This document shows, piece by piece, positions 30 to 10,254 of a DNA stretch of 45,889 nt. Under the pieces are notes generated by a model. The model worked only from the letters and a program-made list of their open reading frames with translations. It was not told where the DNA came from and ran no database searches. The DNA is from Acidobacteriota bacterium (GTDB lineage Bacteria > Acidobacteriota > JAAYUB01). Within the stretch, counting starts at the first letter, position 1. The number at the start of each line of letters is the position of its first letter. The DNA lies in contig JAFGRT010000127.1 of assembly GCA_016935015.1 (NCBI GenBank), positions 1 to 45,889 of the forward strand. Reading direction: 5' to 3'. The position numbers and the translations under genes are program-made.

Positions 30-162
30 ATATCACACCGAAAAAAAAGAGACAATACCCAAAACCCCCTTTTATGTCGCAGGCCCAGCGGTGGAGAAGC
101 GCTTGCATTCCACCGTCAAAAGAGTAAAATACCATCTGAATCTGCCGGGAGCAACCATTGGC

Positions 163-1293
163 ATGCCATTGAGTACCATCGAAGAAGCCGTTGCAGAACT
201 GCGGGCCGGCCGCCTGATCATTGTTGTCGATGATGAAGACCGTGAGAACGAGGGCGATCTGACCATGGCCGCCGAGAAGGTTACACCCGAGGCCATCAAT
301 TTCATGGCGCGTTACGGCCGGGGTCTCATCTGCCTGCCTCTTGCCGGCGAGCGCCTGGATGAACTGCAGATCCCCATGATGGTCTCCGAAAATTCCTCCA
401 GTTTCGGGACCGCATTCACCGTTTCCATCGAGGCGCGGAGCAATGTCACCACGGGTATTTCCGCCGCCGACCGGGCGACGACCATCCGGGCGGCCATCGA
501 CCCCCGCACCCGACCCGGCGACCTGGCCCGACCGGGTCATATCTTCCCGTTGCGCGCCCGACCTGGAGGAGTGCTGGAGCGGGCCGGCCAGACAGAGGCG
601 GCTGTGGATCTGGCCCGCATCGCCGGCTTGTACCCGGCCGGTGTCATTTGCGAGATCATGAACGAGGACGGCACCATGGCCCGGCTGCCCCACTTGCAGG
701 AGGTGGCACGCCAGCACCGCTTCCGGATCATCACCATTGCCGATCTGATCCAGTATCGGCTGCGGACAGAGAAATTTGTGGCGGAGGTCGAGCGAACCAT
801 CCTGCCCACGGTGTACGGTGATTTTACGGCCGTACTCTTCCAGAATCGACTCAATGCACGCCATCACCTGGTGTTGTTCAAGGGGGATATCACTACGCCG
901 GAACCGGTTCCCGTGCGGGTGCATTCCCAGTCGATCCCGACGGACGTTTTTCAGTCTCTTCAGAATCCGTCAGGACAGTATCTGCAAAAATGCATGCGGT
1001 ATATCGCCGCTGAGGGGCGCGGCGTGATCCTCTATCTGTGCCTCGATCCTGACGGGGCGCGCATGGCCCGGGAACTGCGCGCCTGCAACCGGCATCTGGC
1101 GAACAGGGAGTATTCCTACGCCGAGGAGGTGTTTTTACAGGAAGATCCCAAGGATTATGGTATCGGCGCCCAGATCCTCAGCTCCCTCGGACTGACCCGT
1201 ATCATCGTACTGACCTGTCACTCCCGCAAGTTCACCGTGTTGCAGGGGTACGGACTGGAAGTGGTGGAGCAGCGCGACGTAAACATTTCCTGA
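163..1293 (+). CDS. ribBA: 3,4-dihydroxy-2-butanone-4-phosphate synthase with degenerate GTP cyclohydrolase II domain (RibBX-like)
   Basis: The N-terminal half (about residues 1-200) is a complete RibB domain. It carries the acidic [11 protein letters not shown] loop, GRGLIC and PGHIFPLRA, and should make the four-carbon riboflavin precursor from ribulose 5-phosphate. The C-terminal half (about 205-376) aligns with GTP cyclohydrolase II, keeping RVHS, AEEGRG-like and [10 protein letters not shown] segments. The three zinc cysteines of HSECLTGD and SLRCDCG are replaced by Ser257, Asn268 and Ser270, and the QEGRGIG loop is gone. The frame is continuous, so this is divergence rather than a frameshift. 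Such hybrids are known as RibBX; the first ring-forming step would need a separate RibA. The ATG at 163 is chosen because it follows GGGAG and matches the usual RibB start; a GTG at 91 would add 24 unconserved residues. No FMN riboswitch is visible upstream. Confidence 0.93.
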
Positions 1294-6698: not shown

Positions 6699-7439
6699 CT
6701 ATTTGCGGAATTCGCCGCCGGTTTGCCGTAAGGCCCAGCGGAGCTGGCGTACTACGCCGCGCAGAATCTTCAGCTCCCGCCGGTTCAGGCCGGCGCGATT
6801 CAGGATGTGCCGCAGTACGTACATGATGCGTTCGGGATCCTGGCGGTGCAGGAAGCCGGCGTCCAGCAAGGCTTCCTGCAGCTGGACGAAAAACTGTTCC
6901 CGGTCACCCACGGCCGCGGGCGGCTCCCGGTCCGGCAACGGGGACGGCCGGGCCGCCTTCCGGTGTCGGTACAGTTCATAGAACAGGATGCCCGCCGCCT
7001 GGGCGATGTTGAGAGAAGGATAGGCCGGGGACGTGGGAATGGACACCAGCCAGCGGCATTTTTTCAACTGTTCATGTCCCAGACCGGTATCTTCGGGGCC
7101 CAACAGCACGCCGATTTCACGTTCTTCGGGCAGCCCCGCCAGGATTTCGGCCAGCTCCGGCGGTGCGAGCAGCGGACCATGACGGGTGATGTCCGGTTTT
7201 CCGGTGGTGCCCACCAGGTCATGCAGGCGGGGGATCAGACGATCCAGATCGTCATGCCATTCTGCGTTTTCCAGGATGGGCAGGGCATGGCAGGCCCTTT
7301 GCCGTGCCTCGGCGTCGACACGGCAAGCCGGTTGCACCAGGTGCAACTGCTCCAGGCCGAAATTCATCATGACCCGGGCGATGGCGCCCAGATTGGCGCT
7401 GCCCTGGATGCCCAGGCAGATCACCGTCAGCCGGGGCAT
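6699..7439 (-). CDS. trmJ: tRNA (cytidine/uridine-2'-O-)-methyltransferase, TrmJ family
   Basis: A SPOUT-class (trefoil-knot) methyltransferase of 246 residues, likely to methylate the 2'-O of the tRNA wobble-region nucleotide 32. Motif 1 is GSANLGAIARVMMNFG, motif 2 LLGPEDTGL and motif 3 IPTSPAYPSLNIAQAAGI, followed by an all-helical C-terminal tail of about 85 residues as in TrmJ. Its ATG overlaps the dapF stop (TGATG), so it is the translationally coupled last gene of the five-gene operon. TrmJ rather than another SpoU-family member is preferred because of the C-terminal extension and motif wording; the exact tRNA target is inference. Confidence 0.85.
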   Translation of the reverse strand: MPRLTVICLGIQGSANLGAIARVMMNFGLEQLHLVQPACRVDAEARQRACHALPILENAEWHDDLDRLIPRLHDLVGTTGKPDITRHGPLLAPPELAEILAGLPEEREIGVLLGPEDTGLGHEQLKKCRWLVSIPTSPAYPSLNIAQAAGILFYELYRHRKAARPSPLPDREPPAAVGDREQFFVQLQEALLDAGFLHRQDPERIMYVLRHILNRAGLNRRELKILRGVVRQLRWALRQTGGEFRK

Positions 7440-8329
7440 CAGGACGCCTCCGCCGCGGAACGGATGGCGGCGGCGAAGATGGTGCCCTGGTAGACGACTT
7501 CCGCCCAGGCTTCCTGGCGGACGGTCCCGCCGGGCTCCCATTCGATCAGGATATCGCCGCCGGGCATGCTGACCATGACCGGTGAGGATGCCCAGCCGTT
7601 GAGGATGGCCGCCACGGCCGCCGCGGCGCTGCCGGTGCCGGACGATGGGGTGATGCCCACGCCGCGTTCCCAGAGCAGCACGTTCAGCGAATTGTCCTCA
7701 ATACGCTGAATGATGCAGACATTAATGCGGGCGGGGAACAGGGGGTGATTTTCCAGGGCGGGGCCGACCGCGGTAACCAGGTTCAGGTCGGCATCGGGAT
7801 AGCGTACCACCAGGTGCGGATTGCCAAGAGAAAGCACGGTGCCAGGCAGCTCTATACCCTTCACCTTAAATGGGTAATCACGAATGGGTGTCTGTACCTG
7901 GCGATCAGCGAAGGGAATGTCCTCCGGTCGCAGCCGCGGCGTTCCCAGTTCGGTGGACAGCAGGAAGCGTCCCTCGGACAGGCGCAGGCACTGCAACTCC
8001 TTGGTGGTCCCGCCGAGATGAACGCGGAGACTCTTTTGAACCCAGATGCGGTTGAAAAACAGGGCTGCGGCCAGACAGCGCAATCCGTTGCCGGACGACT
8101 CCGCTTCGGAGCCGTCGGCATTGTAAATGCGGGCCTCCACGCCCGGCGGGTCGGTGCTGAGCCGCCAGAAAATCATGCCGTCGGCACCGGCGCCATAACG
8201 GCGGTTGCACAAACCCCGCGCGGCTTCGGGCGGAAAGATGCGGCCGGCGGCCAGATCGGTGGCGGCCATGATGATGAAATCATTGCCCATACCGTGGCAT
8301 TTGGTGAAATGAAGAGGTACGTCTTTCAT
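7439..8329 (-). CDS. dapF: DapF-family protein (diaminopimelate epimerase fold) lacking both catalytic cysteines
   Basis: The 296-residue product has the full two-domain DapF fold: FTKCHGMGNDF at the N-terminus, YNADGSEAESSGNGLRC, GNPHLVV and ERGVGITPSSGTGS. DapF interconverts LL- and meso-diaminopimelate using two cysteines as base and acid, one just before GNG and one just before GTG. Both are serine here (Ser79, codon 8095-8093; Ser230, codon 7642-7640; both TCC). All substrate-binding segments around them are kept. The frame is intact and the gene sits inside a housekeeping operon, so decay is unlikely. It may be a slow or altered epimerase, a different isomerase, or a binding protein. 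The ATG at 8329 follows GGAA; a GTG nine bases upstream has no ribosome site. Confidence 0.9.
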   Translation of the reverse strand: MKDVPLHFTKCHGMGNDFIIMAATDLAAGRIFPPEAARGLCNRRYGAGADGMIFWRLSTDPPGVEARIYNADGSEAESSGNGLRCLAAALFFNRIWVQKSLRVHLGGTTKELQCLRLSEGRFLLSTELGTPRLRPEDIPFADRQVQTPIRDYPFKVKGIELPGTVLSLGNPHLVVRYPDADLNLVTAVGPALENHPLFPARINVCIIQRIEDNSLNVLLWERGVGITPSSGTGSAAAAVAAILNGWASSPVMVSMPGGDILIEWEPGGTVRQEAWAEVVYQGTIFAAAIRSAAEAS

Positions 8330-8359: not shown

Positions 8360-9739
8360 TTATGGTGATGTGGGCGCCAGCCGGGCCCTGAGATCCATGA
8401 TAGTGTCCGTCATCTCCGCCTGAATCCGCGCCAGGGCGTCGGGTGTGGAGGCCTCGAATCGCAGTACCAGCAGCGGCTGGGTGTTGGAGGCCCGCACCAG
8501 GCCCCAACCGTCGTCGAAATCCACCCGGGCGCCATCGATGTCGATTACGGGGCGAGTGGCCCTGTAGTGCTCCTGAACGGCTCTGACCAATGGCTCCTTG
8601 AGGGATTCCGGACATTCCAGGCGGATTTCGGGCGTGTTGAAGGTTGACGGCACATCGGCCATGAGGTCGGCCAGATCCCGGCCGGTCCGGTCGGTGATCT
8701 CCAGCAGCCGCCCCGCGGCATACAGGGCATCGTCAAAGCCAAAATAGCGGTCGGCAAAGAACATGTGTCCGCTCATTTCACCGGCCAGGGCCGCGCCGGT
8801 CTCCTTCATTTTGGCCTTGATCAGGGAATGACCTGTTTTCCACATCAGGGGCCGACCGCCCAGCCGCGCCACTTCATCGTACAGCACGCGTGAGGCCTTG
8901 ACTTCGGAGATGATGGTGGCGCCCGGTTGCCGCGACAATACATCGCGGGCATACAGCAACAGCAGCTGATCGCCGTGCACGATGCGGCCGGCGGCATCCA
9001 CCACACCGATCCGGTCGCCGTCACCGTCGAAAGCGACGCCCAGGGCGGCGTTCTGTTGCCGGACCAGGCGGATCAGATCGGTTAGGTTCGCGGCGACGGT
9101 GGGATCGGCCTCGTGATTGGGAAAACGGCCGTCCACATGGCAGTAAAGTTCCACCACCCGGCATTTCATGCGGCGGAGGAGTTCCGGCGCCACTAGGCCG
9201 GCGGTGCCGTTGCCGGCATCCACCACCACCTTGGGGCGACTGTTGAAAACGCCGAAGTGCCGGGCCAGGTACTCGATGTAATCGGGGATGATGGGGCAGG
9301 CGGTTTCCCGGCCCTCCCCCTGATCGAAATCCTCTGTTTCCACCCGGCGGCGCAAGGCCTGGATATCGTCATCGTACAGGGCGTCGAGGCCGCTGCAGAT
9401 CTTGAAACCGTTATATTCCGGCGGATTGTGACTGGCGGTGACGGCCACGCCGCCACCGGCTTCCAGGTAAACAATGGCGAAGTAGACCAGGGGTGTCGGG
9501 CAGATGCCGATATGGATGACATCCAGGCCGGTAGAGAGGATGCCGTAGCTGAAGCGGGTGGTGAACTCCAGTCCGGACAGCCGGCCGTCGCGGCCCACCA
9601 CAACCGAGGTTTTCCCCCGGCGACGAAGCTCGGTGCCCACCGCCCGGCCGATGGCTTCGGCCAGATCAGGGGTCAGTTCCCGGCCGGCGATGCCGCGAAT
9701 ATCATAGCGCTTGAAAATGTGCGGGGAAGGGATGTGCAT
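8360..9739 (-). CDS. Phosphomannomutase/phosphoglucomutase
   Basis: A 459-residue alpha-D-phosphohexomutase moving phosphate between C1 and C6 of mannose or glucose phosphates, feeding GDP-mannose, glycogen and envelope polysaccharides. The four domains show YDIRGIAG at the start, the phosphoserine loop TASHNPPEYNG, the metal loop DGDGDR, the sugar-specificity loop GEMSGHMFF and the phosphate-binding RASNTQPLLVLRFE. GEMSGH and the overall length favour the bifunctional AlgC/ManB type over GlmM. The start ATG follows AGGAA. It lies 14 bp after coaD and 30 bp before dapF in the same operon. Confidence 0.92.
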   Translation of the reverse strand: MHIPSPHIFKRYDIRGIAGRELTPDLAEAIGRAVGTELRRRGKTSVVVGRDGRLSGLEFTTRFSYGILSTGLDVIHIGICPTPLVYFAIVYLEAGGGVAVTASHNPPEYNGFKICSGLDALYDDDIQALRRRVETEDFDQGEGRETACPIIPDYIEYLARHFGVFNSRPKVVVDAGNGTAGLVAPELLRRMKCRVVELYCHVDGRFPNHEADPTVAANLTDLIRLVRQQNAALGVAFDGDGDRIGVVDAAGRIVHGDQLLLLYARDVLSRQPGATIISEVKASRVLYDEVARLGGRPLMWKTGHSLIKAKMKETGAALAGEMSGHMFFADRYFGFDDALYAAGRLLEITDRTGRDLADLMADVPSTFNTPEIRLECPESLKEPLVRAVQEHYRATRPVIDIDGARVDFDDGWGLVRASNTQPLLVLRFEASTPDALARIQAEMTDTIMDLRARLAPTSP

Positions 9740-9753
9740 AACGGATTCCTGTT

Positions 9754-10254
9754 CTAGCGGGATAGGTTGTATTTTTGGATCAGCCGCCGGGCCACCGCAT
9801 CGGGAACCAGGCATTCCGGTGTGCAGCCGCAGGAGAACACTTCCTTGACCAGCCTAGAGCTGAGATAGGAATATTTCTGATCGGGTACCAGGAACACGGT
9901 CTCGATATCCGGCGCCAGTTTGCGATTCATCAGGGCCATCTGCAGTTCATATTCGTAGTCGGATACGGCCCGGATGCCCCGGATGATGACGTTGGCGTTG
10001 TGCTGGCGGGCGGCCTCGACCAGCAGGCCGTCAAAATAAATGGTCTCGACCCGTGGTCCGAAGTCGGTGATGGCATCCCGCATCATTTCCAGCCGTTCCT
10101 CGGGGCTGAACAGAGGCTGCTTGTCCTTGTTGACGAGAATGGCGGCGATCACCGTATCGAACAGTTCCAGGCAACGCTTGATGATATCCAGATGCCCAAA
10201 GGTGACCGGATCGAAAGAACCGGGATAGATGGCGATGACCTTCTTGCCTGTCAT
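9754..10254 (-). CDS. coaD: Phosphopantetheine adenylyltransferase
   Basis: Transfers AMP from ATP to 4'-phosphopantetheine, the penultimate step of coenzyme A synthesis. The 166-residue protein has the family's usual length. It has YPGSFDPVTFGHLDII with the TxGH nucleotide-binding motif, NKDKQPLFSPEERLEM, VIIRGIRAVSDYEYE, and the late YSYLSSRLVKEV segment that contacts ATP. The start ATG follows an AAGGAGGT site. It is the second gene of the operon, 28 bp behind the RlpA-like gene. Confidence 0.96.
   Translation of the reverse strand: MTGKKVIAIYPGSFDPVTFGHLDIIKRCLELFDTVIAAILVNKDKQPLFSPEERLEMMRDAITDFGPRVETIYFDGLLVEAARQHNANVIIRGIRAVSDYEYELQMALMNRKLAPDIETVFLVPDQKYSYLSSRLVKEVFSCGCTPECLVPDAVARRLIQKYNLSR

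What the first reader, a model, noticed from the sequence alone, without database searches (positions are those of the whole stretch)
7439..8329. DapF with serine in place of both catalytic cysteines
The residue before GNG (Ser79) and the one before GTG (Ser230) are both encoded by TCC. In DapF these positions are the two cysteines that act as base and acid in the stereo-inversion. The substrate-binding segments, fold length and operon position are all intact, so this is not obvious decay. Either the enzyme works with Ser/Ser chemistry (which would be unusual), has another activity in the family, or diaminopimelate is made by another route. A linked observation is that the RibBA gene 7 kb away also lost its catalytic cysteines.
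Basis: partly seen in the sequence, partly recalled or inferred. Interest (0 to 1): 0.75.

Follow-up and report, generated by a model that had tools for sequence, protein, structure and literature searches.

The report
DapF epimerase with Ser/Ser active site
This is a cell-wall amino-acid epimerase gene that has serine where every studied relative needs two catalytic cysteines; the swap is not an error, occurs in about half of the host's phylum, arose at least twice, and sits in bacteria with no other known enzyme for the step, so textbook chemistry for this essential reaction may not be universal.

Summary
The gene (window 8329-7439, minus strand, 296 aa) is DapF by sequence and fold, and both catalytic cysteine positions are serine (Ser79, Ser230). 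It is no local oddity. Of 51 DapF sequences typed from the same phylum, 30 are Ser/Ser, 2 Cys/Ser and 19 Cys/Cys. A motif census finds the first serine in 196 of 396 species. Ser/Ser arose at least twice (a single origin is rejected, p-AU 0.0003). It uses all four TCN codons, and in comparable species pairs dN/dS is below 1. In the window's clade every residue that holds the reacting amine or the distal amino acid of diaminopimelate is invariant. No genome has a second DapF or a meso-DAP dehydrogenase above cut-off. Eleven Ser/Ser genomes carry DapA, DapB and LysA, so they need LL-DAP converted to meso-DAP and have no other known enzyme for it. Best reading: a natural Ser/Ser DAP epimerase, contrary to mutant data in which one Cys-to-Ser change nearly abolishes activity. 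Activity is untested. The window's own family lacks DapA, DapB and LysA but keeps MurE and DapF, so its exact substrate and supply route are unknown. The "linked" RibBA gene looks like the known RibBX.

The parts
7439..8329 (-). dapF-like gene, 296 aa, Ser/Ser active site (P0001)
   Evidence: Translation; NCBIfam TIGR00652 DapF 189 bits over cut-off 114.65; two PF01678 halves
8093..8095 (-). Ser79 codon (TCC), position of catalytic Cys73 of H. influenzae DapF
7640..7642 (-). Ser230 codon (TCC), position of catalytic Cys217 of H. influenzae DapF
6699..7439 (-). trmJ-like tRNA methyltransferase; its likely ATG overlaps the dapF stop (translational coupling inferred)
   Evidence: TIGR00050 over cut-off; ORF list
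8360..9814 (-). phosphoglucomutase/phosphomannomutase gene (pgmG-like) 30 bases upstream of dapF
   Evidence: NF046027 527 bits, below its cut-off of 600
9754..10254 (-). coaD-like gene (phosphopantetheine adenylyltransferase), first gene of the inferred coaD-pgmG-dapF-trmJ unit
   Evidence: ORF list, motif read by eye; not searched

Best explanation
It is a functional DapF-type epimerase in which the two catalytic cysteines have been replaced by serines. It binds LL-DAP (in the window's own family possibly a close analogue such as lanthionine) as DapF does: the distal L-amino acid is held by Asn70, Asn170, Asn203, Glu221 and Arg222, the reacting amine by Asn16, and the carboxylate by the N-termini of the two helices that begin after Ser79 and Ser230. 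The two serine hydroxyls face each other across the alpha-carbon; one acts as base and the other as acid, giving meso-DAP for MurE and, where present, LysA. Shown here: the serines, their conservation, two origins, invariant substrate ligands, absence of a second DapF or Ddh, and the pathway context in relatives. Inferred: catalytic activity, the roles of the serines, and the substrate in the window's own organism.
For: Ser/Ser in 30 of 51 typed phylum members; first serine found by motif in 196 of 396 species, 110 of 210 genera. Two origins with the trait columns blanked, single origin rejected p-AU 0.0003. In the window's clade Asn16, Asn70, Asn170, Asn203, Glu221 and Arg222 are invariant in 26 of 26; these correspond to the distal and proximal DAP ligands (PMC12039745; PMC8225329). 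dN/dS 0.04-0.37 in eight Ser/Ser pairs with usable divergence. One DapF per genome, no Ddh above cut-off, MurE with the DNPR motif in all 27 Ser/Ser genomes read. Eleven Ser/Ser genomes have DapA, DapB and LysA over cut-off; the operons of G014, G029, G041 and G053 add DapD over cut-off. Precedent in the related proline racemase superfamily: a Ser93/Cys hydroxyproline epimerase and a Ser90/Thr dehydratase (PMC4113996).
Against: No activity has been measured. Single Cys-to-Ser mutants of histidine racemase (PMC11602996) and of the Dab racemase PddB (PMC8225329) lose nearly all activity, and Cys-to-Ser is used to stall DapF for crystals (PMC12039745). No new conserved acid or base appears in the Ser/Ser clade to help. 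The window's own family lacks DapA, DapB and LysA, so DAP itself is not shown to be its substrate.
Confidence: 0.68

Rival explanations
1. The Ser/Ser protein is catalytically dead or nearly so and is kept for another role, for example as a partner protein as E. coli DapF is for RppH, while an unrecognised enzyme makes meso-DAP.
For: Cys-to-Ser mutants of relatives are almost inactive. E. coli DapF binds and stimulates RppH (PMC4227774, listed).
Against: All substrate ligands stay invariant over 26 sequences, more than a scaffold role needs; the replacement is always serine, never Ala, Gly or Thr, in two independent clades; no candidate enzyme was seen beside dapA/dapB in the operons read.
Confidence: 0.16
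2. The protein acts on a different substrate or reaction: lanthionine epimerase, a racemase of another diamino acid, or a dehydratase-type reaction.
For: The window's family keeps MurE and DapF but lacks DapA, DapB, LysA and LysW; F. nucleatum has lanthionine in its wall, no DAP pathway, and a DapF homologue that is a histidine racemase (PMC11602996).
Against: PddB, a relative with another substrate, has changed most distal ligands, whereas here all are kept. Sister families with the same active site have full DAP pathways. Lanthionine would keep the same mechanism, so that version refines the best explanation.
Confidence: 0.13
3. Sequencing, assembly or alignment artefact.
For: Single draft assembly for the window (237 contigs).
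Against: The same residues in 29 other assemblies with varied serine codons; motif in 196 of 396 species with one hit for the reversed control pattern.
Confidence: 0.01

Closest known systems
Diaminopimelate epimerase DapF (TIGR00652; two PF01678 domains), e.g. H. influenzae, E. coli, Pseudomonas aeruginosa 8qzy, Anabaena 9mro
   Same: Fold (top PDB matches are all DapF), length, about 30-36% identity, all proximal and distal DAP ligands, helix N-termini that bind the carboxylate
   Different: Both catalytic cysteines (Cys73, Cys217) are serine
Engineered H. influenzae DapF C73S (2q9h) and C217S (2q9j)
   Same: Serine at one of the two positions, same fold
   Different: Laboratory single mutants made to stall catalysis; here both are serine by nature
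Proline racemase superfamily 4-hydroxyproline epimerase with Ser93/Cys and trans-3-hydroxyproline dehydratase with Ser90/Thr (PMC4113996)
   Same: Related fold; natural serine as catalytic base at the first position
   Different: The epimerase keeps one cysteine; the Ser/Thr member is a dehydratase; other substrates
Histidine racemase HisR of F. nucleatum and CntK; PddB Dab racemase; O-ureidoserine racemase (7vdy)
   Same: DapF-like fold, PLP-independent racemases
   Different: Cys/Cys active sites; PddB changed the distal ligands

Membership tests
DapF (diaminopimelate epimerase) | Profile match TIGR00652 above curated cut-off | tested here: met
   189.2 bits against 114.65
DapF (diaminopimelate epimerase) | Two-domain DapF fold | tested here: met
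   Model pLDDT 66, pTM 0.63; best PDB matches are DapF, TM 0.53-0.72
DapF (diaminopimelate epimerase) | Residues that bind the distal L-amino acid and the reacting amine of DAP | tested here: met
   Asn16, Asn70, Asn170, Asn203, Glu221, Arg222 in 26 of 26 of the clade
DapF (diaminopimelate epimerase) | Two catalytic cysteines | tested here: not met
   Ser79 and Ser230; hence filed as a Ser/Ser variant and not as a canonical DapF
DapF (diaminopimelate epimerase) | LL/meso-DAP epimerase activity | not testable with these tools
   Indirect support only: sole candidate in eleven genomes with DapA, DapB and LysA
DapF (diaminopimelate epimerase) | Host genome makes LL-DAP (DapA, DapB present) | tested here: not met
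   Absent in the window's genome and not above cut-off in its family; present in sister families with the same active site
Proline racemase superfamily | Sequence or fold membership | tested here: not met
   Only distant fold similarity, 12-17% identity
RibBX (for the neighbouring ribBA-like gene) | Intact RibB domain, RibA-like domain without zinc ligands | tested here: met
   ribB domain over cut-off, ribA far below; [19 protein letters not shown] lacks the zinc cysteines, read by eye; definition in PMC10012899

The most novel reading that the evidence does not exclude
Natural amino-acid epimerases with no catalytic cysteine: in about half of a bacterial phylum the essential LL- to meso-DAP step is carried out by a Ser/Ser pair, evolved independently at least twice from Cys/Cys ancestors, which would mean that thiolate chemistry is not required for cofactor-independent alpha-proton abstraction in this fold.
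Probability: 0.62. Interest if true: 0.82.

Novelty: new variant of a known kind. Interest (0 to 1): 0.68.

Why it matters
PLP-independent racemases are taught as thiol/thiolate enzymes, and changing either cysteine to serine nearly kills the ones tested. A large natural Ser/Ser clade in an essential cell-wall pathway makes a long-standing question directly testable: how the DapF fold removes a proton with a pKa near 29, and whether the thiolate or the closed cage does the work. It also means that annotation pipelines call these genes DapF without noticing the missing residues, and that thiol-reactive DapF inhibitors would be expected to fail against such bacteria.

Tried and rejected
Pseudogene or decay: rejected (intact frames, dN/dS below 1, invariant ligands). 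Cysteines displaced in alignment: rejected. Bypass by Ddh: no match above cut-off in 60 genomes. Second Cys/Cys DapF: none; weak extra matches in G014 and G051 (23 and 21 bits, below cut-off) lie near DapA-like genes and are more likely hydroxyproline-type enzymes. DapL as an explanation: not found above cut-off in the window's genome with TIGR03540 (the other DapL model was not run genome-wide), and would not remove the need for DapF. Single origin of Ser/Ser: rejected. The genome-contig scan found only a Cys/Cys relative in Methylotenera, so no named Ser/Ser organism was obtained; plasmid records gave only matches below 60% identity, and the six fetched were Cys/Cys. A viral contig scan gave only a fragment. 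The structure model used one homologue only, because other relatives are not accepted by that tool, and is of modest quality. The phylum could not be named with the tools; gene content did not settle it.

Full report
Observation. The gene is on the minus strand, 8329-7439, and encodes 296 residues. It passes the NCBIfam DapF equivalog cut-off, matches solved DapFs at about 30-36% identity over its whole length, and is the only PF01678 protein in the genome. The residues before GNG and GTG are Ser79 and Ser230, both TCC, aligned with Cys73 and Cys217 of H. influenzae DapF. It lies in an inferred unit coaD-pgmG-dapF-trmJ; trmJ probably starts on the dapF stop codon.

It is not an isolated event. 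DapF was read from 51 genomes of the same phylum in a sample of 60: 30 are Ser/Ser, 2 Cys/Ser and 19 Cys/Cys. All seven sequences from outside the phylum that were fetched are Cys/Cys. A pattern for N-x-D-G-x5-Ser-G-N-G, restricted to TCN serine codons, hits 196 of 396 species and 110 of 210 genera of the phylum, against one hit for the reversed pattern; a few hits in genomes with two matches look like chance. Serine is encoded by TCC, TCG, TCT, TCA and once AGC, so a recurrent base-calling error is not credible.

Origins. With the two trait columns blanked, the tree puts 26 Ser/Ser sequences, including the window's, in one clade (support 100/96) and four in a second clade (100/99) inside the Cys/Cys group; the two Cys/Ser sequences form their own branch (91/91) in that same group. 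Forcing all Ser/Ser sequences together is rejected (p-AU 0.0003). The direction Cys to Ser is inferred from the Cys/Cys state of all outgroups. In eight Ser/Ser pairs with usable divergence dN/dS is 0.04-0.37; the distant pair of the window with G001 gives 0.51 on near-saturated sites.

Active site. In Anabaena DapF the distal amino acid of DAP is bound by Asn66, Glu215, Arg216, Asn164 and Asn197, and the reacting amine by Asn13 (PMC12039745); the H. influenzae equivalents are listed in PMC8225329. The matching residues here, Asn70, Glu221, Arg222, Asn170, Asn203 and Asn16, are invariant in 26 of 26 sequences of the window's clade. PddB, a relative with another substrate, has changed most of the distal ones. 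The second clade lacks the Asn170 equivalent, as do most Cys/Cys enzymes of this phylum. No new conserved Cys, Lys, His or acid distinguishes the Ser/Ser clade; the only fully conserved differences are the two serines. The AlphaFold model is modest (pLDDT 66) but puts both serines at helix N-termini, as in DapF, and its best PDB matches are DapFs, including the engineered C73S and C217S mutants.

Pathway. No genome of the 60 has meso-DAP dehydrogenase above cut-off or a second DapF above cut-off. Eleven Ser/Ser genomes (G012, G013, G014, G019, G027, G029, G032, G039, G041, G051, G056) have DapA, DapB and LysA all above cut-off. Operons in G014, G029, G041 and G053 contain DapB, DapA, DapD (above cut-off), a DapE-like deacylase and, in most, aspartokinase and an aminotransferase (DapE and the aminotransferase are below equivalog cut-offs). 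The succinylase route ends in LL-DAP, while LysA needs meso-DAP (established pathway knowledge), so an epimerase is required and this is the only known candidate. MurE has the DNPR motif in every one of the 27 Ser/Ser genomes read.

The window's own family. G000-G003 have no DapA, DapB, LysA, Ddh or LysW above cut-off, yet keep MurE and Ser/Ser DapF. The same loss is seen in several other families of the phylum with either active-site type; some of those carry LysW, hence probably make lysine by the aminoadipate route. How such bacteria obtain the third residue of the wall peptide is unexplained; salvage, lanthionine or an unknown route are open. For the window's own protein the reaction type is therefore better supported than the exact substrate.

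Mechanism. The best-supported reading is a two-base epimerase using Ser79 and Ser230. Against it stand the mutant data: single Cys-to-Ser changes in HisR and PddB remove nearly all activity. For it stand the strict retention of serine (never Ala, Gly or Thr) in two lineages, the invariant substrate cage, the pathway logic, and a superfamily precedent in which Ser replaces the first cysteine in a working epimerase (PMC4113996). A dead scaffold with a hidden epimerase elsewhere cannot be excluded.

Comparison. It is a DapF by profile, fold and ligands, but fails the defining Cys/Cys feature, so it is described as a Ser/Ser variant. Literature searches found no description of such a variant; the library held is open-access only. 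The ribBA-like gene at 91-1293 has an intact RibB domain and a RibA-like domain without its zinc ligands, which fits the known RibBX; it is unrelated.

Noticed in passing
Genomes G000-G005, G007, G009, G010, G015, G016, G018, G021-G025, G034, G035, G037, G042, G047, G049, G054, G059 (same phylum): No canonical DapB and no DapA above cut-off, although DapF (where found) and MurE are kept; five of them (G007, G015, G016, G035, G042) carry LysW over cut-off. The source of the wall diamino acid is unexplained.
   Followed up: partly
window 91-1293 (+): ribBA-like gene with intact RibB and a RibA domain lacking its zinc cysteines: fits the known RibBX form.
   Followed up: yes
L030 (G011) and L065 (G026): DapF with Cys at the first and Ser at the second catalytic position, a natural mixed state in the same group as the second Ser/Ser clade.
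   Followed up: partly
G037, locus L027: Ser/Ser DapF on a long branch with ASSTGSA in place of SSGTG, suggesting further change at the second helix.
   Followed up: no
L169-L171, L176 (G053, G041, G014, G029): DapB in these genomes is short (about 230 aa) and matches the family model mainly over its middle and C-terminal parts.
   Followed up: no
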